Shown: piece after piece, positions 8,848 to 23,453 of the stretch
Position numbering within the stretch: position 1 is the first letter of the stretch
How the letters are laid out: each line of letters starts with the position of its first letter
The notes under the pieces: model-generated
Databases searched by the model: none
Told to the model about the DNA's origin: nothing
The model's input: the letters and a program-made list of their open reading frames with translations, nothing else
Made by a program: the position numbers and the translations under genes
Assembly (NCBI RefSeq): GCF_000226975.2
Contig: NZ_CP019285.1
Location: 2,356,001 to 2,420,000 of the forward strand
DNA from: Halobiforma lacisalsi AJ5
GTDB taxonomy: Archaea > Halobacteriota > Halobacteria > Halobacteriales > Natrialbaceae
Direction: 5' to 3'
DNA length: 64,000 bases

Positions 8848-11800
8848 ATGGCCGTCGAGAACACCGACGCCGTCGGCGATCCCGAACAGCGAACGGGTTC
8901 GAATCGACACGTGGAGACGGGCTCGAGGTCCGACCAGGGGGAGCCACGAGGGGGAGCGAGCGGGCAAGCGCAAGCGGAGTTAGCCGCCGACCTCCGGGAC
9001 GCCTGCCGCGGGGACGTCCGCTTCGACGAGTATACGCGAGTGCTGTACGCGACCGACGGGAGCATATATGGAGCACAGCCCGCCGGCGTCGTCCTGCCGC
9101 GGGACGTCGACGACGTCCGGGCGGCGGTCCAGGTCGCGAGCGACCACGGCGTGCCGATCCTCCCGCGGGGTGCGGGCTCTTCGCTGGCCGGCCAGACCGT
9201 CGGTCCCGGCTGCGTCGTACTCGATCTCTCGCGACACATGGACGTGATCCTCGAGATCGATCCCGACGAGCGTCGGGCGGTCGTCCAGCCCGGGGTCGTC
9301 CAGGACGACCTGGACGACGCGCTCGAGCCCCACGGGCTGAAGTTCGCTCCGGACCCGGCGTCGTCGAACCGGGCGACGATCGGCGGCGGGATCGGGAACA
9401 ACTCGACGGGAGCACACTCGGTCCGGTACGGGATCACAGACGCCTACGTCGAGGAGTGTACGGCGGTCCTCGCGGACGGCTCGATCATCGAGGCTCGCGA
9501 CGTCGTCCTCGACAGCGAGGAATGGGACCGGATCGTCTCGAAGGACGACCGCGAAGCGGAGATCTACCGGACGGTCAGGGCCGTCGTCGAGGACAACGCG
9601 GCGGAGATCGAGGAGCGGTACCCGGACCTGAAACGCTGTGTCAGCGGCTACAACCTCCAGAAGGTGATCCGTGAACCCGGAGAGAACGAGGGGGCTACCG
9701 CTTCGGAAGCCCGAGCGGGCGAAGCCCGCGAGGACGGCGAGCGGATCATCAACCTCTCGAAACTGCTGGTCGGGGCCGAGGGGACCCTCGGCGTCGTCGT
9801 CGAGGCGACGCTGTCGCTCGTTACCCGCCCCGAGGAGACCGCGTTGCTGGTCGCCTGCTACGACGACCTGCTCGAGGCGCTGTCGGCCGTTCCCGCGGCC
9901 CTCGAACTAGAGGCCAGCGCGGTCGAGTTGATGGACGACGAGGTGTTCCGGCTGGCCGCCGATTCGACGGAGTACGCCGAGTACGCCGCGCCGATCCCCG
10001 ACGATACCGCCGCGGCGCTGATGCTCGAGTTCGACTCGGAACTGTTCGACGACCTCCCGGCCGCGGTCGACGACGCGCGGGACCGCCTCGTCGCGAACGG
10101 GGCGGCCGTCGAGTCTCTCGAGGCCCTCGATCCCGCCGACCAGAAGCGGCTCTGGAAGCTCCGGAAGGCGGCGATTCCGCTGTTGATGAGCATGGAGGGC
10201 GATCCGAAACCGTACCCGTTCGTCGAGGACGCCTCGGTCCCGCCGGACGAACTCGCGGAGTACGTTACGCGGTTCGAGGACGTCCTCCAGGACCACGATA
10301 CGACCGCAGCATACTTCGCCCACGCCGGCGCCGGGACGCTGCACATCCGGCCCGTGCTGAACCTCAAGACCGAGGACGGCGTCGAGACGATGCGTTCGAT
10401 CGCCGCGGACGTCACGGACCTGGCCCTCGAGCACGGCGGGGCCTTCTCGGGCGAACACGGGGACGGACTGGCTCGCACGGAGTTCAACCCGAAGCTGTAC
10501 GGTCCGGAGCTGTGGGCGGCGTTCAAGGAGGTGAAATCGGCGTTCGACCCCGACTGGCGCATGAACCCGGGCAAGGTCGTCTACCGCGAGGACGTCTCCG
10601 CGAGCGACGCGACCGACCCGAGCGAAGGCTCGTCACGGGATCCCCGTGACGGTGACCCCACTGACAGCCGCAAGCACCTCCGGTACGGCCCCGACTACGC
10701 ATCGCTCGAGCCCCGGACGGAACTCGACTTCGACGAGGAGGGCGGCTTCTCGCACCTCGTCGAACTCTGTAACGGCTGTGGTACCTGCCGCCAGACGGGC
10801 AGCGACGTCATGTGTCCGACCTACCGGGCCACCGGAGAAGAGATCGCGACGACCCGCGGCCGGGCGAACCTGCTCCGGGCGGCGATCAGCGGCGAGATCG
10901 ACCCCGAGGAGCTGTACGACGAGCGGTTCCAGTCGGAGGTGCTCGACCTCTGTATCGGCTGCAAGGGCTGTCAGAGCGACTGCCCGACCGGCGTCGACCT
11001 CGCGAAGCTCAAGGCAGAGGTGAAAGGCCAGTACCGCAAGCGAGAGGGGGCGACGCTTCGCAACCGGCTGTTCGCGAATATCGACCGGCTCGCCGCGGTC
11101 GGGAGCCGGCTCGCGCCGGTCGCCAACCGGGCGACGGCCCTCCCCGGCGCGCGGCGGCTCCTCGAGCGGACGGTCGGGATCGCCGCCGACCGGTCGCTGC
11201 CGACGTTCCGACGGGAGACGCTGGTCGACTGGTTCGCCGCGCGCGGTCCCCGGGTCGATCCCGACCGGGCCGTCGACGGGGTCGTGCTCTTCCCGGACAC
11301 CTACACGAATCACTCGAGCCCCGAGGTCGGGAAGGCGGCGGTCGAGGTGCTCGAGGCTGCGGACGTCCGCGTCGCGATCCCCGACCTCGGGTCGACGGGA
11401 CGGGCGGCCTACTCCCAGGGGTTGCTCGAGGAGGCCAGGGAGCGCGGCCGGGAACTGCTCGCGGATCTCGAGCCGTACCTCGACCGGGGGTGGTCGGTCG
11501 TCTTCCTCGAGCCGTCGGACGCGTCCATGGTCGTCGACGAGTACCGGTCGCTGCTCGCCGACTCCGGCACGGCCGCCGACGGCGGCGAGCGGGGGTGGGG
11601 CGACGCGGTCGACGACACCCGGAGTCGGGTCGATCGGCTCGCGGACAACAGCTACGGCGTCTTCGAGTACCTCGATCGGCGGGGACTCGACGACGATCTG
11701 GCCTTCGACCCGGATCGCCGGGAACGACTGACCTACCACGGACACTGCCACCAGAAGGCCCGCGGCGCGGACCACCACGCGGTCGGGGTCCTCCGGAGAG

Positions 11801-12048
11801 CCGGCTATCGCGTCGAACCCGTCGACTCGACCTGTTGTGGCATGGCCGGCTCGTTCGGCTACGAGGCGGAACACTACGACCTCTCCCGGTCGATCGGTGA
11901 CCTCCTCCGGAGGAAACTCGAGGCGAGCGACGGTGCCGATGTCGTCGCACCCGGCGTCTCCTGTCGAACGCAGATCGGCGACTTCGAGGGGCGGTCGCGG
12001 CCGGAGCATCCAGTCGAGGCGCTCGCCCGCGCGCTCGATGCGGCGTGA
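8848..12048 (+). CDS. FAD-linked oxidase / Fe-S (GlcD-GlpC type) fusion dehydrogenase
   Basis: This 1066-residue polypeptide joins two proteins that are separate in many organisms. Residues about 60-240 form a FAD_binding_4 domain (VVLPRDVDDVRAAV, ILPRGAGSSLAGQTVG), and 290-570 an FAD-oxidase C-terminal domain ending in GEHGDGLARTEF. From about 640 there are two 4Fe-4S motifs (CNGCGTCRQTG and CIGCKGCQSDCPTG), followed by CCG-type heterodisulfide-reductase-like segments with STCCGMAGSFG near 995. Such fusions oxidise 2-hydroxyacids such as D-lactate or glycolate and pass electrons to the respiratory chain. The exact substrate is not readable. Acidic polar insertions near residues 285 and 590-610 look like halophilic linkers. 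Confidence 0.9.
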   Translation: MAVENTDAVGDPEQRTGSNRHVETGSRSDQGEPRGGASGQAQAELAADLRDACRGDVRFDEYTRVLYATDGSIYGAQPAGVVLPRDVDDVRAAVQVASDHGVPILPRGAGSSLAGQTVGPGCVVLDLSRHMDVILEIDPDERRAVVQPGVVQDDLDDALEPHGLKFAPDPASSNRATIGGGIGNNSTGAHSVRYGITDAYVEECTAVLADGSIIEARDVVLDSEEWDRIVSKDDREAEIYRTVRAVVEDNAAEIEERYPDLKRCVSGYNLQKVIREPGENEGATASEARAGEAREDGERIINLSKLLVGAEGTLGVVVEATLSLVTRPEETALLVACYDDLLEALSAVPAALELEASAVELMDDEVFRLAADSTEYAEYAAPIPDDTAAALMLEFDSELFDDLPAAVDDARDRLVANGAAVESLEALDPADQKRLWKLRKAAIPLLMSMEGDPKPYPFVEDASVPPDELAEYVTRFEDVLQDHDTTAAYFAHAGAGTLHIRPVLNLKTEDGVETMRSIAADVTDLALEHGGAFSGEHGDGLARTEFNPKLYGPELWAAFKEVKSAFDPDWRMNPGKVVYREDVSASDATDPSEGSSRDPRDGDPTDSRKHLRYGPDYASLEPRTELDFDEEGGFSHLVELCNGCGTCRQTGSDVMCPTYRATGEEIATTRGRANLLRAAISGEIDPEELYDERFQSEVLDLCIGCKGCQSDCPTGVDLAKLKAEVKGQYRKREGATLRNRLFANIDRLAAVGSRLAPVANRATALPGARRLLERTVGIAADRSLPTFRRETLVDWFAARGPRVDPDRAVDGVVLFPDTYTNHSSPEVGKAAVEVLEAADVRVAIPDLGSTGRAAYSQGLLEEARERGRELLADLEPYLDRGWSVVFLEPSDASMVVDEYRSLLADSGTAADGGERGWGDAVDDTRSRVDRLADNSYGVFEYLDRRGLDDDLAFDPDRRERLTYHGHCHQKARGADHHAVGVLRRAGYRVEPVDSTCCGMAGSFGYEAEHYDLSRSIGDLLRRKLEASDGADVVAPGVSCRTQIGDFEGRSRPEHPVEALARALDAA

Positions 12049-12143
12049 CTCGCGGAGCCGATAACGGCGGGGCAGTTCCCATTGATCGCCGGAGCTCGTT
12101 GCGTATCGGTGCGGTCTTGTGGGCCGATCCGGTACTACCCGCT

Positions 12144-12416
12144 ATGCCAGTTCCCAAATCCGAGTTCGACAGTCTCCCGCCGTGTGACTTCTACACGCCG
12201 GAGGAACTCCTCGAGCCGGAGCAGATGTACACCGTCTACGAGATCGCCCGCCTCCTGCAGGGCCTCGAACCCGACGCCGAGATCGAACGCGAGACCGAGG
12301 ACGTCCTGTTAGACTGGGCGATCCCCTGGATCATGATCAACGCGGACGAACTCGTCGTCGCCGAGCCGCGCAACGACGACGAACCGGGCTACTACGGGCT
12401 GAAATCCGACGAATAG
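12144..12416 (+). CDS. DUF5827 family protein
   Basis: This 90-residue acidic protein begins MPVPKSEFDSLPPCDFYTPE and contains LYxVYEIARLLQGLEPD-like helices and DVLLDWAIPWIMIN. The whole is typical of a small conserved haloarchaeal family that I recall as DUF5827, with no known function. The frame is open upstream, but the ATG at 12144 matches the conserved start. The stop codon lies one base before the ATG of the next gene, so the two are almost certainly co-translated and may act together. Confidence 0.75.
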   Translation: MPVPKSEFDSLPPCDFYTPEELLEPEQMYTVYEIARLLQGLEPDAEIERETEDVLLDWAIPWIMINADELVVAEPRNDDEPGYYGLKSDE

Positions 12417-12417
12417 G

Positions 12418-13251
12418 ATGCTGCTGCTCGTCGTCGGAGCCGACCGCGTCGACGCCGGCAAAACCACCTTCTCCGTGGGCTTGCTCGCACGGACCGGCGG
12501 GACCGGCTACAAGCCGCGGGCGGGCAACGACTACTGGTTCGACCACGACGACTGCCGGCACGCAATCGCGGACGGCCGTCTCTACGGGAAAGACGCCAAG
12601 CGACTCGCCGACGCCGAGGGGCGGGGTCGGGGGCCGGAGGACCTAAACCCCGTGCACCGGCTCTGGCGGCCGGCCCCGGGTGGCGGGTCCGGCCTGCTGG
12701 GCCGGGCGGACCGGGAGTTCCTGGTCGACCGCGTCGGTCGTCCGGACGGCGACGACGTCACCTACGTCCGGAACGCCACCGCGGAGGTTCCCGACCCAGT
12801 CGCCGACTCCCTGCCGCTCGAAGACGCAATCCCCGTCGAAACCGTCGAGGAACTGAACGAGGTCTCGGCCGAGCGGTACGTCCCGACGTTCGAGGATCTC
12901 GCCACTGAGATCGAAGCACGGGACCTCGCAGTCGTCGAATCCTACGGTGACATCGCGCTCCCGCTCGCGTCGCTCGATCCGGCGGCCGTGGCCGCGGTGG
13001 CCGTCGTCGAACCCGGCCGGGCGACCCTCTACCGCGGGGATCGGTACTGTCGGGCCTGCGAGATCGCCAGTTCGAGCCCCGTCGACGGCGCGCTCGAGAA
13101 ACGGGTCGGCGACGTCGTCGACTACCTGGAGCCGTTCGACCGCGTCCGGTTGCCGCCGCTCGGCAGCGACGCGCGAGCCGATCCCGGCCGGATCGCCGAC
13201 GCCTACGGGGAGGCCTACGACGCGCTGTTGGCCGCCGCGCGCGAGCGATAA
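12418..13251 (+). CDS. P-loop ATPase, dethiobiotin-synthetase-like fold
   Basis: The 277-residue protein opens with LLLVVGADRVDAGKTTFSVG, a degenerate P-loop of the SIMIBI/BioD type (xDAGKTT). It continues with an acidic region containing NDYWFDHDD, an insertion rich in Gly and Pro (residues 60-105), and the strands DLAVVESYGDIALPL and AVAAVAVVEPGRA, which look like the Walker B and later strands. It probably binds ATP. The substrate is unknown, and a true dethiobiotin synthetase role is not supported by context because there are no biotin genes nearby. It directly follows the DUF5827 gene by one base. Confidence 0.7.
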   Translation: MLLLVVGADRVDAGKTTFSVGLLARTGGTGYKPRAGNDYWFDHDDCRHAIADGRLYGKDAKRLADAEGRGRGPEDLNPVHRLWRPAPGGGSGLLGRADREFLVDRVGRPDGDDVTYVRNATAEVPDPVADSLPLEDAIPVETVEELNEVSAERYVPTFEDLATEIEARDLAVVESYGDIALPLASLDPAAVAAVAVVEPGRATLYRGDRYCRACEIASSSPVDGALEKRVGDVVDYLEPFDRVRLPPLGSDARADPGRIADAYGEAYDALLAAARER

Positions 13252-13269
13252 CTCCGTTCCCCTTTGGCG

Positions 13270-13317
13270 CCTTTCAGGCCTGGCACCTTTCAGGCCTGGC
13301 ACCTTTCAGACCTGGCG
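13270..13317. repeat. Three tandem copies of a 16-bp repeat
   Basis: The unit CCTTTCAGGCCTGGCA occurs at 13270-13285 and 13286-13301 exactly, and at 13302-13317 with two changes. The third copy contains the stop codon and last codons of the minus-strand MBL hydrolase, so that protein's C-terminus is repeat-derived. Confidence 0.9.
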
Positions 13318-13884
13318 CGCCATCCGCGCCGCGAGTTCGACGTGATCGTACGGCTCCGTCGTCACGCTCGGTCCGTGTCCGGTGTGTAACTCCGACAGGT
13401 CCTCGTCGACGATCTCGAGGACGCGGTCGAGACTCTCGATCAGCGTCCCGCGGTCCCCCTCCGGGAGGTCCGTCCGGCCGAAACTACCGTTCTGGAAGAC
13501 CAGGTCGCCGGCGAACAGCACCCCCGCCTCGGCCGAGTAGAAACAGAGATGATCGTCCTTGTGGCCGGGCGTGTGGAGCGCGAGGTACTCGTGGTTCCCG
13601 ATCGCGACGCGGTCCTCGTCGGCGATTTCGCGGTCGACCCCCTCGATCGAGGGATCGTAGCCCCAGGCGTCGACGTCGAAGGCCGACTTCACGTCCTCGA
13701 GGTTGCCCACGTGATCCCGGTGGGTGTGTGTCAGAAGGAGGGCGTCCAGACCGTCGACTCGAGAGCGGACCGCGTCGACGACGTCGAAGTTCGCCCCCGC
13801 GTCGATCAGGACCGTCCGGTCGCCGTCGACCAGAAAGACGTTGCTCGTAAACGCCTGCACGCCCTGCGCGAGGTTGTCGATCAT
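13306..13884 (-). CDS. MBL fold metallohydrolase
   Basis: This 192-residue protein is a compact metallo-beta-lactamase-fold hydrolase. The zinc motif is THTHRDHVGN (HxHxDH), followed by LHTPGHKDDHLCFY, GVLFAGDLVFQNGSFGRTDLPEGD and LHTGHGPSVTTEP. It resembles glyoxalase-II-like or general MBL hydrolases; the substrate is unknown. The open frame extends upstream, but MIDNLAQGV at 13884 is the usual start of this group. The extension includes unrelated translated DNA. The gene is convergent with the P-loop ATPase. Confidence 0.88.
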   Translation of the reverse strand: MIDNLAQGVQAFTSNVFLVDGDRTVLIDAGANFDVVDAVRSRVDGLDALLLTHTHRDHVGNLEDVKSAFDVDAWGYDPSIEGVDREIADEDRVAIGNHEYLALHTPGHKDDHLCFYSAEAGVLFAGDLVFQNGSFGRTDLPEGDRGTLIESLDRVLEIVDEDLSELHTGHGPSVTTEPYDHVELAARMARQV

Positions 13885-14062
13885 GCGCTCGAGTACGGCG
13901 TCGACCGGTTTGTGCGTGTCGACCCCGGAACGTGACGTAGGACCGGAGTCGTTCGAGTCGGTAGAGAGCAATCGTATTCCGAGAACTCGAGGAGGTGGAC
14001 GATCCAAATGACGATCCGCGTATTCACAAGCATTTTTAGCTACGGCACGTAGTGAAAAACGA

Positions 14063-15532
<1,470 letters not shown>

Positions 15533-15734
15533 CGCCGGTTCGTGGCGTACGGCTTCCACCGTTTCCATACGCGTCTGGACTATCGATCTCTGCTCGAGTC
15601 CGTTTCGCTGTTCGTCGTCCGCCGAGAGTCGACTCCCGTCTCCCGTTTAGTCCTGTGCTATCTCGAACCAAGTTCGGTTCGAAACGGAATGCTTAAACAT
15701 CGTACCGCGTAACGATAAGATGCACTCGCGGAAC

Positions 15735-15809
15735 GCTCCGATAGTGTAGTCCGGCCAATCATATTGCCCTCTCGAGGCAATGACCGGGGTTCGAATCCCC
15801 GTCGGAGCA
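15735..15809 (+). tRNA. tRNA-Glu (anticodon CUC)
   Basis: The acceptor arms GCTCCGA (15735-15741) and TCGGAGC (15802-15808) pair fully, with discriminator A at 15809. The anticodon stem TTGCC/GGCAA encloses a 7-base loop with CTC at 15771-15773. The T arm carries GGTTCGAATCC between CGGGG-type stems. No CCA is encoded and no intron is seen. A TTAAAC box about 45 nt upstream is a likely promoter. A ruined integrase follows about 160 bp later, so this gene is a probable integration target. Confidence 0.95.
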
Positions 15810-15966
15810 CTCCTTTCTGCCGCCGTCTCCTGATTTCGAGCCCGTGCTATCATCATGTACCCATGTGGCTCGAAGGCAATTCGATTCAGAAGGTCTGGTC
15901 ACCCCGGCGCTGTACAGCGATTAGAACGATTTACCCTGCAATCCGATTCGCAGGACTTACCCACCG

Positions 15967-17075
15967 GTGGTCGGCGTGAACCTGAGCGACTTCGCCGTCG
16001 TCCCGGAGCCGACCGCAAACCGCCTCAGCGAGCGTCAACTGGTGGATTACCGGTCCGAGCGGGAAGCGACGATCAAGTGGTTGCTCACGTTCGGCATCGA
16101 CCCCGAGAAGGCCAAGGGATACGCGGAGAGTACCGTCAAGAACCGCATCTACCGAATGGACCAGTTCTACCGGTACGCGTGGGACGAAGAAGAACAGTAC
16201 ACCACCGCCGTTACCCACGAACACGCCGACGCGTGGATGCAAGAGTTGGCCTACGCCGACTGCAGCGACACGCACCGCGACCTGTGTCAGAAGGCCGTTC
16301 GGATGCTGTTCAAATGGCGCGCCCACGAGCGGGGCGGCGACGAGTGGGAGCCGACGATCACGTTCGCCTCCGATAGCAGAACGACGACACCCCGGGACTA
16401 CCTCACGCTCCAGGAGCGCCAACTCGTCCGAGAAGCCGCGCTCCAGTACGGGAGCGTTCCGTCGTACAACAACGTCTCACCCCGTGAACGGAGCAAGATC
16501 GCGGCGTACCTCGCTCAGCGAATCGAGAAACCAGTCGACGAGATCACGAAACAGGACTGGGAACGGGCCAACGACTGGAAGATCCCCAGTCTCGTCAGCG
16601 TCAGTCTCGACGCCGCACTGCGCCCGATCGAGGTCGAGCCGTAGTACAGTGGGTCGATCTCGATAACGGGATCTTGCGAACCCCCATCGAGGACAGCTCA
16701 AAGAACGAGGACAACTGGCGAGTCGGCCTCAGTAGTCGCACGATCACCACGCTCGAGCGGTGGCTCGATCAGCGTGCGACGTACGATGTGTACGAGAGGC
16801 GAGGCGAGTTGTGATTGACGCGAGAAGGAAACCCGTACGGCGCTGCCGCCCTGCGACGAATTCTCCACGATCTGTGCGACACCGCTGGCATCGACTACGA
16901 AGATCGACAGATGAGCTGGTACACCATCAGGCACTCCACGGGGACGTACATGACTCGTGAAGAGGATCTTGCGGCCGCACAGACACAGCTTCGTCACAAG
17001 AGTCCGGAGACGACCATGAAGTACGATCAGGTACCCGTCGAGGACCGGCAAGACGCCCTCGACCGGATAGGCTAA
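15967..17075 (+). pseudogene. Tyrosine recombinase/integrase, frameshifted and with a nonsense codon
   Basis: The first frame (15967-16644) encodes the N-terminal SAM-like domain and the start of the catalytic domain up to SLDAALRPIEVE with the first catalytic Arg. One base is then missing near 16640, and the protein continues in another frame (VVQWVDLDNGILRTP). That frame meets TGA at 16812-16814, where relatives would have Trp, as I judge from the flanking GEL and LTREGNPY. The last part holds WYTIRHSTGTY and LRHKSPETTMKYDQ with the His, Arg and Tyr residues. All catalytic residues are still recognisable, so decay is recent. Its place next to tRNA-Glu marks the edge of an integrated element. 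Confidence 0.88.
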
Positions 17076-17199: not shown

Positions 17200-18546
17200 T
17201 TATATCACTCCATGTAAAACCGACTCTAACTCCGCTTCCAACTCAGAAGCCTGCAGAATGGCAATCTCCTGCTCACCTTGGCCCTCTACAGACGCCGTCT
17301 CCCGATCAAGATCCTGCACGACCAGCATCCCGTTCCACCCCGATCCGAAGTACTCGCCGTCTTCCTCGCCAAACACGAACTCGTCGTTCACCCGCAAAAA
17401 CGCGAGATACTCGAGCGTCTCCTTGATCCCCTGGCGAATCGTCTCCTCCCGCGTACTATTTTTCACCTCGACGATCAGGTACTCGTGCTCGTTCTCGTCC
17501 TCCGAAATGACCTCGAGGACGATCACGTCAGGCCGACCCGTGTGATTCTGGTAGTCCTTTCCGAAGTAGTTGCCAGCAATCTCCTGTGCGGCAACCTGGA
17601 CCTTGTCCGTCCGAGATAACTCCGCTTTGTCCTCATCAGGGACCGCCACAAACGATAGCTCACGATCCCGGGCCGAGTTATCGTGGTAGAGGACGATCTC
17701 TTTCTCGCCCTTGAACCGCGCCAGTTCCTGTCGATCCGTGGCGATCGTTTTGAACTCGGGCTGGGTCTCCCGCATCTCCTCGAGAGTCGCCACGAACCGG
17801 AAGAGGACGAACAGCTCGAACAACGTGTCCTGATCGTCGGGTGCGATAGCGGTCTCTTCGAGCAACTGCCGGATCGCGTTGGGCTCCCCTCGGAACAACC
17901 GCTCTCGAGAGCGAAGCAACGACGCCGCATCCCGATACACCTCGTGGCGCGAATTGGCAGCCGTCGTCAGCATCCGCTCGGTTGGCTCATAGGTATCGGG
18001 CTCGCGGATCCGCCGGACGTGTACGTTTCGCTCGACGATACGCTGGAGTTCATCAACCAGTTCGTCGCTCCCCTTCCATGTCTCCGTGACCCACTCGTAA
18101 TCGCCCCGGAGGTACTCCTCGGCTTCTCGAATCGTCTCGTGGACGACGGAAATCAACCGCTTTAGAACGATATTCTCGGGGATGTCGTAGTCCTCGGATC
18201 GATTCTCGCAGACAAAAAGCGACCTGTCGCGGGGATGCTCCGCATACCGTTTCTTGATCGTCTTCCCCCAGTTGATTCGCCCATCGACCGTTCCCCGCCG
18301 CGTTCGAGACGTCGTCTGTGTCTCGGTCCGAATACTACGCAGATGCGCTGGCAGTTCCCTGAAGAACTCGACGACGTCGCTCTGGAGAATGAAGTGCAGA
18401 TCCAGGAGCAACTCGTATTCCTCGAACCGCTCGTCTAACTGCTCGGGCTTGATCGACCGGGCCAACTCCTGCTCCGGGAAGGAGCCATGCTTCGCGTAGG
18501 CGAGGATGTCCTCGGTGAGCTGCTCGAGGAGGGCGTCCCTATTCAT
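17200..18546 (-). CDS. mcrC: McrC-type restriction nuclease subunit (DUF2357/PD-(D/E)XK)
   Basis: The 448-residue protein is a McrC-like partner of the ATPase gene upstream. Its middle region has VDGRINWGKTIKKRY and ENRSEDYDIPENIVLKRLI, typical of DUF2357/McrC proteins. The C-terminal nuclease core is GRPDVIVLE followed by EYLIVEVKN (Asp near 340, Glu-Val-Lys near 360-362), the PD-(D/E)XK signature. McrC subunits cut DNA when driven by the McrB GTPase/ATPase. The ATG at 18546 lies inside the last codons of mcrB (the two genes overlap by 8 bases), so the subunits are translationally coupled. Catalytic residues are intact. Confidence 0.85.
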   Translation of the reverse strand: MNRDALLEQLTEDILAYAKHGSFPEQELARSIKPEQLDERFEEYELLLDLHFILQSDVVEFFRELPAHLRSIRTETQTTSRTRRGTVDGRINWGKTIKKRYAEHPRDRSLFVCENRSEDYDIPENIVLKRLISVVHETIREAEEYLRGDYEWVTETWKGSDELVDELQRIVERNVHVRRIREPDTYEPTERMLTTAANSRHEVYRDAASLLRSRERLFRGEPNAIRQLLEETAIAPDDQDTLFELFVLFRFVATLEEMRETQPEFKTIATDRQELARFKGEKEIVLYHDNSARDRELSFVAVPDEDKAELSRTDKVQVAAQEIAGNYFGKDYQNHTGRPDVIVLEVISEDENEHEYLIVEVKNSTREETIRQGIKETLEYLAFLRVNDEFVFGEEDGEYFGSGWNGMLVVQDLDRETASVEGQGEQEIAILQASELEAELESVLHGVI

Positions 18547-21500
18547 TCGTGGCAAGCGTCACCTGGAGCATCTCTTGGGCAGCCGATTCGAGCAGATCGC
18601 CATTGATTTCGTCGACAGCCGCGAGCCTTCGAACGATCTTCTCACGTCTCGGCACCCCCTCTAACTGCGGGAAAATGTAGCTGATGACCGCCTGCGTTAG
18701 GTGCTGGTCGAGGTCCGCTTCCGGGTGATGCGTGATGTATCGGAGGATGTCTTCGACGATTGCGGGCCCGATCGCTCGTTCGTCTATCGCCTGGTTGGTC
18801 GCTTGCCAGACACGGCCGACTGCCCACGCCTGGGGACGGGACGCTTCGATTTCCCACGCATCGGCATACTCGAGCACGACGTCCTCGACCGTTCGTCCAC
18901 CCTCTGTTTGTCCTGTTCCCTCCGGAAGTTCGGGCACAGGGATGCGAACGAACGCGAACCGTCGCATGAACGCGTAACTCATCTCGTACAGCGACGTCTT
19001 GTCGTAGGCGTTCATCGTAGCGAAGATCCGCCACGAGTTGGGAACGACGTACTGGTTTGCAGCAGGACGTCCTTCGAGGTCCGCATACGTCGTGAGTTCC
19101 ACTTCTCGCCCATCGACCGTGTACGGCAGTTGCACCGATTGGCCGGACAACAGCGTGAAGAGTTGCCCGAACGCTTTGTCGATATCCGCTCGGTTGAGTT
19201 CGTCAATCACGAGGAGTTCATTCGACTGCGTCCCACTCTCGAGATCTTTGAGCCGGTTGAGGACGATACCGGGTGTAAAGGAGAGGTCGTCACCGTTCTC
19301 ACCGGATTCGTTCGGCATATACCCGCCGACGGTATCGAACGTCGACCAGTCAGCAGTGGCTGTCGTCATCTCGAAATCCGTGTACAAGTGAGGGTGATGC
19401 TCGACGAGATACTCACAGACCCGTTCGGCGATCTCCGTTTTCCCCGTTCCCGGCGGGCCGGTAAGGAAGACGTGCTTACCGGATTGCAGCGCTGTCGCGA
19501 TCTGCTCGAGAATCTGCTCACCGCGTCCATCTTCGAAGTGAAGCCCCTCGAGGATGTCCGTCGGAAGCGTACACTCGAGGTCCTGGTGAGGATTGATCGG
19601 TGAGACCTCCTGTAGGTCCTCAGCCATCCCCTCGATCAACGCAGCGGGACGCTCGTAATCGATTTCACCGTCCTCTGTCCGGAAAGTCCCATACATCGAT
19701 TGCGCGGGGAACTCCTTTCCGGAGATATTCGCACAGAGTCGATTGGCCTCCTCGATCGACAAGCAATTGGCCGTCAGGGCAGCCAGTTCTTGATTGACTT
19801 GTGCTGTCTCTTTGGCAGTGATCCCTTCTGTGAAGTCGATAGCGTCGACGTCCCCGGTAAGGAAGAGCCGATCGAAGCCGGCGATCATCGAGAAGTCCGC
19901 ATCGGTCTCGTATTCCTCCCACCACCATGGGTCGGGTTTCTCAGTGGTTTCGCCGAAGACGACTGCACCGATTACACCGCTTGGTTGGGAATCGAGTTCC
20001 TCCTTTCCAGGTTCGGTTCGTGAATGAAGAATCCCGACGTCACCCTTCTCGAGCTGTTCCCAGCGATTGCGATGTTCCGGCTCGAACGAGAGCGATCCGT
20101 GTTCGATGGCCGTGAGCCAGTACTCTGGCGGCGCGGTAAACTTGTAGACAGTCGGTTCCTGGTCTCGCAGGTGCGTCGTTAGTGGATGGTCGATTTCAAC
20201 CGATGGTTGGACCCGGGATGGATCACCAACCTCGTATGAATCTTTGAGCACACTGTTGAGTCGAGGTTGGTTGAGACCACCCCCGAGATCTAGTTCCTCC
20301 TGGCGAAGTCGCACCCAGCCCAAGAAGAGGGTCTGAGCGGGCGAAAACCGACCAAGTGTTCCACTGCCGAGGGCAGACGCTTTCTCGGCTAAATCCGCCT
20401 CGAGAGTCCGGTAGACGATCCGAAGCTGATCGAGTTTCGTTGCGGTCGACCGGTCGACAGTATCGGATGGCCTGAACCCCTCGAGCGCCTCCGACCACTC
20501 TTCGATGAAGGAGTCCCCGACTCGAGTCTGGAACCAGGACTTGTCTTCTGCCGAGAGACGAGACCGAATATCCTCGAGGGCCGCGTCTAACGAGTCGTAT
20601 TCCCCGGCAGCCCCGTCAGGATAAAGCTGTTCGCCCTGAATCACCTCGATGAACAGGGAGACAGAATCGTACTCCTCGTAGAACCCTGAGCCACCGCGAT
20701 CGAAATTGATGGCACTGAACGTATCGTTGGGCCAGCCCTTGAACCCGAGCAGATCCCAGAACTGCGCTCGATCGAGCTTGGCTTCGTAGATCGGTTCGAG
20801 GAACATTACATGCGGGAAGACCTGATCGGTCACATCGCCCCAGCCGACTGCGTTAGTGAACTGGGCTGCTACATCGTCATCTAACACTGTGGCGTGGGTG
20901 ATCTGCGCAAGGAGTGTATACGACCCGCCACGGCGTCCCTCTCGATCAGCGAAGAGGAGGTAATCGCCCTCATCGGCCGGCTCGTCTTCCTGGTTCCCCC
21001 AGACTCGAACGGAGTCCCCGTCGATCGGCGGCTCGTAGGTATCGGTGATTTGGTCGCGGGGAACGTCCTCGAGTATGGTCCGCTCGAAATTCGTCCGGAT
21101 GGGGCCATCACCCGTCTTGATCGGGACCTGGTACACCGAGGGATCGGCAAACTGCTGCAGGTTCGAGTTCGCACCCGTCTGAATGGAGCTAGAATCGGTG
21201 CTCTCTCGAGTCCCGCGTTCGGCTGGGAGTTCGTCGTCCCGAATTGGCGCAAGGAGGAACCGAATTGCACGTCGTGTGTTCCCCTCCGAGTCTGGGAGTC
21301 CTTCGTAGAAGTGACCCGCATAGAGGTATTGCCCGATGTAGCGGACGCCATCGTCTTCCATCTCGAAAAAGTGCAACTCGCGGCCGTCCTCGAGATGATC
21401 TCGAATCGCTCGGTTGCCCCGGACCATCTCCATGTCGCCGACCTGGCCTTCGCCCGTGTAGACTATCGTGCCATCCGAGCGGAGTTTATCCTGGTAGCCA

Positions 21501-22189
21501 TGTTCTTCGCCGGTGCCACCGCTAAAGAGAAAGACGACCGGTTCGTCCCTCGAGGGAGCGATTCCTCCCTGGATGCTGCCGCCATATGCCGAGTGCAGTT
21601 CGCGGCGTTCGTAGATAGTGTCAGACTCGAGGTCGACACTCGAAACCCCGTGTAGTTGTTCGGCGACTGCTTCACCGGCTGCGGTGAGATGGATCTGATC
21701 GTCGCTTCGATCGACGTAGCCGGTCGTCTGCAGCCACTCACGATGGCGGCTCGCAACGCCGGGCGTTTCCATCTGACACTCCTCGAAGGTCTCCACGAGC
21801 AACTCCATGAGTTCCTCATCGGTTTTCGGTTCAGTAGTGAGTGCAGCGAGGATCGTGTCGAACCCTTTGACCGTGGTTCGAAGGGCGTTGTAGAGGACCG
21901 CTGGGTCCTGTTCCTCGAGATAGCACCGTCCAATTCGGGTACAGCTGTATGTAGCATCCGTGCTCTCGAGCAGGTCCAATTGCTCGAGGAACTGCAGTCG
22001 TCGTTCGATGGCGTCAGGGTCTTCAGCGTTCGTCCTGGCGGCGATCCAGTCTACGACGTCGTCTCGAGGAACGCCGTCTGAGTTTTCGCCAGCCGACTCG
22101 AGAAACGAGAGCAAATCAGCCAGAATCTCGGATCGCTCCGCGAGGTCACCGTAGAACCGTGCGGTAGACATCCGACGATCGTCCGTCAT
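18539..22189 (-). CDS. mcrB: McrB-type AAA+ restriction ATPase with SRA-like and EVE/PUA-like reader domains
   Basis: The 1216-residue protein has, in order: winged-helix-like segments (residues 15-185); an SRA-like domain of the ScoMcrA type (about 195-315; YGGSIQGGI, VYTGEGQVGDMEMVRGNRAI); a first PUA/EVE-like region (390-520; VRVWGNQEDEPADEGDYLLF); a helical part; a second EVE-like region (680-790; EYWLTAIEHGS, EKGDVGILHSR); and a McrB AAA+ domain. The last shows Walker A GPPGTGKTE near 911, Walker B LLVIDELNRAD near 994, and MNAYDKTSLYEMSYAFMRRF as the McrB MNxxD motif. It should load on modified DNA and drive McrC. A TATA box at 22215-22224 supports the leaderless ATG at 22189. The reader-domain calls are from motif reading only. 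Confidence 0.85.
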   Translation of the reverse strand: MTDDRRMSTARFYGDLAERSEILADLLSFLESAGENSDGVPRDDVVDWIAARTNAEDPDAIERRLQFLEQLDLLESTDATYSCTRIGRCYLEEQDPAVLYNALRTTVKGFDTILAALTTEPKTDEELMELLVETFEECQMETPGVASRHREWLQTTGYVDRSDDQIHLTAAGEAVAEQLHGVSSVDLESDTIYERRELHSAYGGSIQGGIAPSRDEPVVFLFSGGTGEEHGYQDKLRSDGTIVYTGEGQVGDMEMVRGNRAIRDHLEDGRELHFFEMEDDGVRYIGQYLYAGHFYEGLPDSEGNTRRAIRFLLAPIRDDELPAERGTRESTDSSSIQTGANSNLQQFADPSVYQVPIKTGDGPIRTNFERTILEDVPRDQITDTYEPPIDGDSVRVWGNQEDEPADEGDYLLFADREGRRGGSYTLLAQITHATVLDDDVAAQFTNAVGWGDVTDQVFPHVMFLEPIYEAKLDRAQFWDLLGFKGWPNDTFSAINFDRGGSGFYEEYDSVSLFIEVIQGEQLYPDGAAGEYDSLDAALEDIRSRLSAEDKSWFQTRVGDSFIEEWSEALEGFRPSDTVDRSTATKLDQLRIVYRTLEADLAEKASALGSGTLGRFSPAQTLFLGWVRLRQEELDLGGGLNQPRLNSVLKDSYEVGDPSRVQPSVEIDHPLTTHLRDQEPTVYKFTAPPEYWLTAIEHGSLSFEPEHRNRWEQLEKGDVGILHSRTEPGKEELDSQPSGVIGAVVFGETTEKPDPWWWEEYETDADFSMIAGFDRLFLTGDVDAIDFTEGITAKETAQVNQELAALTANCLSIEEANRLCANISGKEFPAQSMYGTFRTEDGEIDYERPAALIEGMAEDLQEVSPINPHQDLECTLPTDILEGLHFEDGRGEQILEQIATALQSGKHVFLTGPPGTGKTEIAERVCEYLVEHHPHLYTDFEMTTATADWSTFDTVGGYMPNESGENGDDLSFTPGIVLNRLKDLESGTQSNELLVIDELNRADIDKAFGQLFTLLSGQSVQLPYTVDGREVELTTYADLEGRPAANQYVVPNSWRIFATMNAYDKTSLYEMSYAFMRRFAFVRIPVPELPEGTGQTEGGRTVEDVVLEYADAWEIEASRPQAWAVGRVWQATNQAIDERAIGPAIVEDILRYITHHPEADLDQHLTQAVISYIFPQLEGVPRREKIVRRLAAVDEINGDLLESAAQEMLQVTLATNE

Positions 22190-22214
22190 TCTTTCGTAAC
22201 ACGTCACAGCACCG

Positions 22215-22224
22215 TATTATAAAT
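22215..22224 (-). promoter_or_regulatory. TATA box of the mcrB-like gene
   Basis: On the minus strand this reads ATTTATAATA, centred about 31 nt before the ATG at 22189. This fixes the seventh codon of the long frame as the likely leaderless start and gives mcrBC its own promoter, separate from that of the upstream nuclease-like gene. Confidence 0.6.
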
Positions 22225-22380
22225 CCTGTTTACACCGATGTCAACTTCGTCCTCTACAATACAGTTTGATGATAACAGTCTCCTCTTCGAAGAAGTCGAC
22301 ATCGATATGTTCAATTCGCCGTCGACAGTGAGTTCGTAGCTCGGTGAAACGCCTCAGCCAACGAGGGAACCGAGATGCCG

Positions 22381-23421
22381 TCAGTATTGGTGTTCGAACC
22401 GCAACTCATCATGAGTGTAAGAGTAGGATTTGATACCCGCTTCTTCGCAACGCGAACTGAGGTCGGTCGGATTTACGTCGTGCTGTTCGCCGAGTTCTTT
22501 TTCGAGATGCTTACAAAACGCGATAGTGATCTCTCGGTCATCGTCGGACTCCTCTGCAACCTCGAGAACCACTGCTAGATCCGGGTCGTCGTAATCTGGT
22601 TTGATGACGTAGTCTCCTGGGGTGAAAGGGTTCTCAGGATACTCGAGATTCGTGTGTTTGTAGGTATAGAGCTTGATATCTTGATCGTCACAATACGAAG
22701 CTAGCTTCGCCGGATGGATCTCTCTCCAGTTCCCAGGACCGTTATCGAGCATATTCGGAAACGCGACGTTCACGGCTTCCCCATCCATCTCTTGCCCGTA
22801 AGCTGTCGTATTTTTCTCCGGTGGCAATACCTCAACGACCACTGCGACCGAAGCATCACCGTCTCCTTGCTTTACGACACGATCGCCGGGTGAGAACGGG
22901 TTCTCCGGTTTTTGATTGAGATGAGCTGTGTTCGGGCCCAAGTCGTGTAACTCATTCATCGGCCGGGCAGCCAGGTGGGCGAGTTTCTCGGGCCCTTCGC
23001 CGGAATATGCCTCCTGGGTACTGACCTTCGATTTGAGCGTCTCAGTGCGTTCCCATCCCAACAGGATCAGGGCATCCTCGTTGTCCCGATGCCAGACCAT
23101 CGCGATGATGTCGTCGTCAGGATCGTTCTCCAGCAGATTCGATGGCCGAAACGCCGAGACGTCTCTCGAGGTCTTCACGTCTACATCGTACCCGAACACC
23201 TCGAAATCGTGGCCAGAGAAACTCTCTGGGTTACACCGCCGAATTGCCGCTTCGTTCTGCCATTCCCACATCTCGACTGGAAGGTACTCTCGACAGAACT
23301 GCTCGAACGCGAGCTCACCGAGATTCCCGATCCGTTTCACGTCGATGTCGTCCGCACCCTGAATCACCGCCTGGTGATTCGCTCGCTCCCGGTCGATCTC
23401 GTCCGGCGAATAGAGATACAT
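22381..23421 (-). CDS. PD-(D/E)XK nuclease-like protein with duplicated C-terminal domain
   Basis: I do not recognise this 346-residue protein by name. Residues 30-125 look like a restriction-endonuclease fold. They contain GNLGELAFEQF with a helix Glu (36), then HDFEVF (Asp72) and YDVDVKTS (Asp81, Lys83), then IIAMVWHRD and ALILLGW. The C-terminal half is a tandem duplication: NPFSPGDRVVK (174) and NPFTPGDYVIK (264) each lead to a VAVVVEV/LAVVLEV strand, then VAF or IAF, then a Cys-bearing helix and IKLYTYKH or IKSYSYTH. This suggests two small beta-barrel binding modules. It precedes mcrB on the same strand, making it a probable third part of the module. Confidence 0.7.
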   Translation of the reverse strand: MYLYSPDEIDRERANHQAVIQGADDIDVKRIGNLGELAFEQFCREYLPVEMWEWQNEAAIRRCNPESFSGHDFEVFGYDVDVKTSRDVSAFRPSNLLENDPDDDIIAMVWHRDNEDALILLGWERTETLKSKVSTQEAYSGEGPEKLAHLAARPMNELHDLGPNTAHLNQKPENPFSPGDRVVKQGDGDASVAVVVEVLPPEKNTTAYGQEMDGEAVNVAFPNMLDNGPGNWREIHPAKLASYCDDQDIKLYTYKHTNLEYPENPFTPGDYVIKPDYDDPDLAVVLEVAEESDDDREITIAFCKHLEKELGEQHDVNPTDLSSRCEEAGIKSYSYTHDELRFEHQY

Positions 23422-23443: not shown

Positions 23444-23453
23444 CAAATATACT
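23444..23453 (-). promoter_or_regulatory. TATA box of the nuclease-like gene
   Basis: The minus strand reads AGTATATTTG, centred about 28 nt before the ATG at 23421, consistent with a leaderless transcript that opens the restriction module. Confidence 0.6.

What the first reader, a model, noticed from the sequence alone, without database searches (positions are those of the whole stretch)
17200..23421. Intact three-gene McrBC-type restriction module beside tRNA-Glu
Three minus-strand genes form a coherent unit: a PD-(D/E)XK-like protein, a 1216-residue McrB-type ATPase and a McrC-type nuclease. All catalytic motifs are intact, and two leaderless promoters and an 8-base mcrB/mcrC overlap are visible. 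The integrase that brought them is ruined, so the cargo has outlived its vehicle, which suggests selection to keep it. McrBC systems usually have two genes; the extra nuclease-like gene is not a standard part that I know.
Basis: partly seen in the sequence, partly recalled or inferred. Interest (0 to 1): 0.85.

Follow-up and report, generated by a model that had tools for sequence, protein, structure and literature searches.

The report
McrBC beside an independent mobile nuclease
A salt-loving archaeon carries an intact two-gene system that probably cuts chemically modified foreign DNA; the third gene beside it is not part of that system but a widely travelling, undescribed stand-alone nuclease gene that has landed next to it.

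Summary
In detail: three intact minus-strand genes, an 8-base mcrB/mcrC overlap (ATGAATAG, kept in most relatives checked), separate TATA boxes, and a broken integrase after tRNA-Glu. The 'three-gene module' does not. In 391 haloarchaeal genomes the first gene and mcrC co-occur exactly at chance (42 genomes, 41.6 expected). The first gene lies beside mcrBC at 10 of about 100 loci, in three orientations, with eight label changes on its tree; elsewhere it stands without mcrBC on chromosomes, plasmids, an integrated element at tRNA-Glu in a congener, and an inducible pleolipovirus beside a cytosine methyltransferase. It encodes a PD-(D/E)XK-like nuclease (E36, D72, D81-x-K83) with C-terminal tandem Tudor/SH3-like domains; no Pfam, NCBIfam or PADLOC model matches it. 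The window's copy is a natural mosaic, breaking near the boundary of its two halves. mcrBC is a type IV-like system whose McrB stacks winged helices, an SRA-like domain resembling ScoMcrA, an unassigned segment and an EVE/YTH-like domain before an NxxD AAA+ motor. McrC's PD...ExK is invariant in 39 sequences. The sister species keeps mcrBC at the same tRNA without the integrase, so 'the integrase that brought them' is unproven. Function is inferred.

The parts
15735..15810 (+). tRNA-Glu (CTC); integration site
   Evidence: congener G052 holds the full tRNA plus further partial copies of its 3' part (52 bp at 100%, 47 bp at 94%)
15967..17075 (+). Broken tyrosine-type integrase, two pieces (15967-16644, 16815-17075); flanking element, not part of the restriction system
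   Evidence: 67% DNA identity to an intact integrase beside the att copy in G052
17200..18546 (-). mcrC-like nuclease gene, 448 aa; PD...ExK (P342, D343, E363, K365 in P0003 numbering)
18539..18546 (-). 8-nt mcrB/mcrC overlap ATGAATAG
18539..22189 (-). mcrB-like gene, 1216 aa
21638..22189 (-). McrB winged-helix region (about aa 1-184)
   Evidence: Pfam HVO_A0261_N E 1.1e-8, at its cut-off; 12 of 32 members of the alignment; helical/wing pattern in the model
21344..21625 (-). McrB SRA-like domain (about aa 189-282)
   Evidence: phmmer to ScoMcrA chains 5zmn (E 0.0042) and 5zmm (0.0094); same region matches phage HNH proteins
20600..21148 (-). McrB segment R2 (about aa 348-530), possibly another PUA-like domain
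   Evidence: profile comparison with the EVE region gives only 17% probability: unassigned
19601..20197 (-). McrB EVE/YTH-like domain (about aa 665-863)
   Evidence: PH1033 Z 13.1, YTHDC1 Z 11.9; local pLDDT about 47-84
18542..19537 (-). McrB AAA+ motor; Walker A at 19436-19459
   Evidence: AAA_5 E 5.5e-17; E. coli McrB 6ut6 E 3.4e-14
22215..22223 (-). TATA-like box of mcrB (TTTATAATA)
   Evidence: GGATTTAT kept in 12 of 12 relatives
22381..23421 (-). Stand-alone nuclease gene, 346 aa (P0001)
23008..23421 (-). P0001 PD-(D/E)XK-like half (aa 1-138)
   Evidence: invariant E36, D72, D81, K83
22384..22902 (-). P0001 tandem Tudor/SH3-like half (aa 174-346)
23445..23451 (-). TATA-like box of P0001

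Best explanation
Two independent defence-type units lie side by side next to a tRNA-Glu integration site. Unit 1 is a two-gene McrBC-type (type IV) system. McrB is inferred to scan DNA with a stack of readers (winged helices, SRA-like, a further segment, EVE/YTH-like), to assemble through its AAA+ motor, and to move DNA with GTP until McrC cuts both strands; the EVE/YTH-like and winged-helix readers make modified adenine or cytosine the likely target, but which one is unknown. Unit 2 is a single-gene mobile nuclease: a PD-(D/E)XK half joined to tandem Tudor/SH3-like domains, with its own leaderless promoter, which probably acts alone against incoming DNA; its C-terminal half appears exchangeable by recombination and may aim it. 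Shown: gene structure, conserved motifs, independence of the two units, mobility, mosaicism. Inferred: every biochemical activity and the targets.
For: Independence: co-occurrence at chance in 391 genomes (from lists); 8 of the 42 genomes with both have them adjacent, in three orientations; 6 of 64 named-genome loci; eight label changes on the P0001 tree, forced by well-supported branches. The homology blocks between window and sister start just upstream of each promoter: mcrBC 17200-22233 at 91.4%, P0001 22602-23459 at 79.0%. Mobility: plasmids, pleolipovirus Halfgib1, tRNA-Glu element in G052 without mcrBC. McrBC: AAA_5 and E. coli McrB matches, NxxD motif, EVE/YTH-like fold, SRA-like match, McrC motif invariant, overlap. 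P0001 fold.
Against: No biochemistry. P0003 matches no Pfam model by itself and its profile finds no solved McrC; only weak DUF2357 and PD-(D/E)XK hints in relatives. The McrB N-terminal model is poor overall (pLDDT 51, pTM 0.31). P0001's nuclease assignment rests on the motif; its model is moderate (pLDDT 75) and fold matches are dominated by the Tudor part. Adjacency to mcrBC in about 10% of loci is more often than random placement would give, so some functional benefit of being together is not excluded.
Confidence: 0.72

Rival explanations
1. P0001 is a facultative accessory of McrBC: it works alone but improves or regulates modified-DNA restriction when beside mcrBC.
For: Adjacent in 8 of 42 genomes that hold both, and in several lineages and orders, including P0001-mcrB-mcrC in Haladaptatus litoreus with a different McrB N-terminus. 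The mosaic P0001 stays beside mcrBC in both sister species.
Against: Genome-level co-occurrence is at chance; own promoter; orientation varies, including convergent; P0001 is not retained with mcrBC in most genomes.
Confidence: 0.15
2. P0001 is the endonuclease of a restriction-modification pair that has lost, or borrows, its methyltransferase.
For: In virus Halfgib1 and Haloferax gibbonsii it lies 119 bp after a C5 cytosine methyltransferase; in several Halorubrum and Halobellus loci a Dam-like methyltransferase lies about 1.1 kb away.
Against: Most loci show no methyltransferase within 6 kb by motif; among 123 immediate neighbours only one matched the Pfam C5 methylase model. A resident unmodified genome would be cut unless other protection exists.
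Confidence: 0.15
3. All three genes are one decaying mobile cargo kept only by chance, with no current function.
For: Integrase broken; P0001 fragments occur in other genomes.
Against: Three long frames are open with invariant motifs, and mcrBC is kept at 91% DNA identity in the sister species.
Confidence: 0.08

Closest known systems
E. coli K-12 McrBC (type IV restriction)
   Same: McrB AAA+ motor followed by McrC with a PD-(D/E)XK motif, two genes in one operon; NxxD motif (PMC11090510 describes the two-component layout)
   Different: The window's McrB has no DUF3578/MrcB_N reader and instead carries a much longer N-terminus with winged helices, SRA-like and EVE/YTH-like domains; McrC is too divergent for Pfam
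EVE-McrB and YTH-McrB fusions (e.g. Thermococcus gammatolerans McrB)
   Same: PUA-superfamily reader fused before the McrB motor (PMC7641849, which also says extra domains are often present)
   Different: Additional winged-helix and SRA-like domains in the same chain, swapped in and out among haloarchaeal relatives
ScoMcrA
   Same: SRA-like domain with sequence similarity (5zmn, 5zmm)
   Different: ScoMcrA is recalled as an HNH enzyme; here the domain is joined to a McrB motor. A 472-aa haloarchaeal protein (L189) has winged-helix, SRA-like and HNH parts instead
HHPV4I (haloarchaeal virus m6A-dependent SRA-wH-HNH enzyme)
   Same: Winged-helix plus SRA-like parts in a haloarchaeal restriction protein (PMC10101028)
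   Different: Order reversed, no HNH; no HHPV4 match was listed when the McrB N-terminus was searched against phages
DpnI-type PD-(D/E)XK enzymes with a separate sensor domain
   Same: P0001 works like this if its Tudor-like half is a sensor (inference)
   Different: Tudor/SH3-like tandem instead of a winged helix; no sequence match to any family

Membership tests
McrBC type IV system | McrB AAA+ motor with Walker A, Walker B and NxxD | tested here: met
   NAYD at 1060-1063
McrBC type IV system | McrC directly downstream with a PD-(D/E)XK motif | tested here: met
   8-nt overlap; PD...ExK invariant in 39 sequences
McrBC type IV system | McrC N-terminal DUF2357 | tested here: inconclusive
   1 of 28 homologues at E 0.0098, window protein none; no solved McrC found
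McrBC type IV system | Modified-base reader at the McrB N-terminus | tested here: met
   EVE/YTH-like fold, Z 13.1 over 136 residues at 2.9 A; SRA-like match. Reader class only, not binding
McrBC type IV system | GTP-dependent cutting of modified DNA | not testable with these tools
   needs biochemistry
E. coli-type McrB (DUF3578/MrcB_N reader) | PF12102 domain | tested here: not met
   absent from the window protein, present in 3 of 32 relatives
CoCoNuT (coiled-coil McrBC branch) | NxD motif instead of NxxD | tested here: not met
   NAYD; definition from PMC11090510
PD-(D/E)XK nucleases (P0001) | Conserved E, D and (D/E)xK acidic-lysine motif | tested here: met
   E36, D72, D81-x-K83 invariant to remote paralogues
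PD-(D/E)XK nucleases (P0001) | PD-(D/E)XK core fold | tested here: inconclusive
   fold matches dominated by the Tudor part; one influenza endonuclease hit at E 0.07
   42 genomes with both, 41.6 expected
HHPV4I-type enzymes | SRA-wH-HNH order | tested here: not met
   wH before SRA-like, no HNH in McrB

The most novel reading that the evidence does not exclude
P0001 founds an undescribed family of single-gene haloarchaeal restriction nucleases in which a PD-(D/E)XK cutter is aimed by tandem Tudor/SH3-like domains, and specificity is renewed by natural recombination that swaps the C-terminal half between lineages.
Probability: 0.3. Interest if true: 0.55.

Novelty: new variant of a known kind. 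Interest (0 to 1): 0.36.

Why it matters
It separates a real, ordinary pair (McrBC) from a neighbour that only looks like a partner, using hundreds of genomes. It also points to an undescribed nuclease family found in about a third of sampled haloarchaeal genomes and on a virus, and to McrB proteins whose readers are exchanged as modules, which makes it testable what modification each reader senses.

Tried and rejected
Three-gene operon: rejected. Homing endonuclease with one target site for P0001: the 5' flanks beyond about -45 differ between loci, so no common site was seen; 3' flanks were not tested. Viral-contig scans with P0001 and P0002 found no relative. Second copy of the tRNA-Glu 3' end in the window: none, so no distal att site. 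CoCoNuT membership: rejected by NxxD. R2 as a third PUA domain: only a weak signal. PDB profile searches for P0001 and McrC: nothing useful; this does not show a new fold. The fold of residues 185-530 of McrB was not resolved (pLDDT mostly under 50). The nuclease half of P0001 was not folded alone, so its fold was barely tested.

Full report
WHAT IS THERE. The window is part of a 4.38 Mb haloarchaeal genome. After tRNA-Glu (15735-15810) come a broken integrase (15967-17075), then on the minus strand an McrC-like gene (17200-18546), an McrB-like gene (18539-22189, 1216 aa) and a 346-aa nuclease-like gene, P0001 (22381-23421). The mcrB stop and mcrC start share ATGAATAG; six of eight relatives checked keep exactly this, one has ATGGATAG, one differs. 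P0001 has a TATA-like box at -30 to -24 and mcrB one at -34 to -26; both recur in relatives.

McrB. The C-terminus is a canonical AAA+ motor (AAA_5; E. coli McrB 6ut6 E 3.4e-14) with Walker A, Walker B and NxxD. Before it, residues 665-863 of the model match EVE (PH1033, Z 13.1, 136 residues, 2.9 A) and YTH (YTHDC1, Z 11.9) structures, although the model as a whole is poor (pLDDT 51). Residues 189-282 resemble the SRA-like domain of ScoMcrA. The first 184 residues look like winged helices (HVO_A0261_N, at its cut-off). Relatives carry different N-termini on the same core: some begin at the R2 segment (about 880 aa), some lack the helical segment (757-792 aa), some carry MrcB_N. A 472-aa protein (L189) has winged-helix and SRA-like parts joined to HNH. 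So the readers behave as exchangeable modules.

McrC. No Pfam model matches the window protein, but P342, D343, E363 and K365 are invariant in 39 sequences, and relatives give weak PD-(D/E)XK and DUF2357 hints. With its position and overlap this makes it a divergent McrC (inference from several weak lines).

P0001. E36, D72 and D81-x-K83 are invariant in 60 homologues and in paralogues at 24-32% identity: a PD-(D/E)XK signature. The model (pLDDT 75) shows C-terminal barrels; Foldseek and VIA-align matches are tandem Agenet/Tudor, chromodomain, KOW and SH3-like folds at modest scores, so Tudor/SH3-like is a fold class, not a function. Nothing in Pfam, NCBIfam, PADLOC or PDB sequences matches.

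IS IT A THREE-GENE MODULE? No. In 391 genomes of the class, P0001 matches occur in 125 and P0003 matches in 130, with 42 holding both; chance gives 41.6. The lists count partial matches and E up to 0.001, so they are broad. Of the 42, eight have the genes adjacent (G000, G320, G166, G282, G361, G278, G226, G141): upstream co-directional, convergent downstream of mcrC, or divergent. Random placement would almost never give eight neighbours, so there is real clustering, as expected of shared defence islands or integration sites. In the genome-contig scan, 6 of 64 loci had mcrBC nearby. On the P0001 tree, ten mcrBC-linked copies need eight label changes, all forced by supported branches; shuffles average 9.7 and 20 of 500 are as low, so there is slight clustering. 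Immediate neighbours at other loci are mixed: integrases, HNH and Mrr nucleases, and ordinary metabolic genes.

MOBILITY. P0001 relatives lie on plasmids and in Halfgib1, an inducible pleolipovirus of Haloferax gibbonsii (PMC7911831), 119 bp after a cytosine methyltransferase. In congener G052 the full tRNA-Glu is followed by two partial tRNA copies; beside one of them is an intact integrase 67% identical in DNA to the window's broken one, and P0001 lies about 3.4 kb beyond that integrase; G052 has no match to McrB or McrC.

SISTER SPECIES. Against Halobiforma haloterrestris, the left flank (11644-15814) is 95.7% identical and ends at tRNA-Glu; mcrBC (17200-22233) is 91.4% identical; P0001 (22602-23459) is 79.0%. 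Where the window has the integrase, the sister has about 340 bp of unrelated DNA. So mcrBC has probably been at this site since before the two split, and the integrase need not be what brought it. The window's P0001 is 87-91% identical to the sister's over its first 400 nt and then 50-71%, whereas it stays at about 80-90% to copies such as L191 over most of the rest. That is a mosaic with a breakpoint near residue 133, close to the end of the nuclease half. One copy was examined in this way; that such swaps are common is not shown.

COMPARISON. The two-component layout, NxxD motif and EVE-McrB fusion are known (PMC11090510, PMC7641849). Winged helices sense 6-methyladenine in DpnI and HHPV4I (PMC10101028, PMC11037411), and YTH-McrB is reported to bind m6A in DNA (PMC7641849). 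These make adenine methylation a candidate target here, but the last paper also notes that the SRA-like part of HHPV4I appears not to sense the modification, so the readers in the window cannot be assigned by analogy.

VERDICT. An intact McrBC pair of a known kind with an unusual stack of readers, next to an independent, mobile, undescribed nuclease gene. Interest moderate.

Noticed in passing
window 22381-23421: P0001 is a natural mosaic: first 400 nt like the sister species, the rest like copies from other genera, with the breakpoint near the end of the nuclease half.
   Followed up: partly
L255 3668-5798 (MW344766.1): An inducible pleolipovirus carries a P0001 relative 119 bp after a C5 cytosine methyltransferase, an arrangement like a restriction-modification pair.
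   Followed up: partly
G052:C1:2512664-2598583: A congener has a full tRNA-Glu and two partial copies of its 3' part in tandem, which looks like stacked integrated elements at one tRNA.
   Followed up: partly
L211 12386-17097 and L213 12389-15688: The same mcrB is whole in one Halorubrum and split by what looks like a transposase gene in another.
   Followed up: no
L171 8956-10023, L172 9251-10318, L173 902-1882: Remote P0001 paralogues (24-27% identity) with a different C-terminal half; in L171 one directly follows a short helicase-like reading frame.
   Followed up: no
L207, L208, L209, L210, L214, L223, L181: In Halorubrum and Halobellus, P0001 is followed by a conserved reading frame and then a Dam-like methyltransferase about 1.1 kb away.
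   Followed up: no
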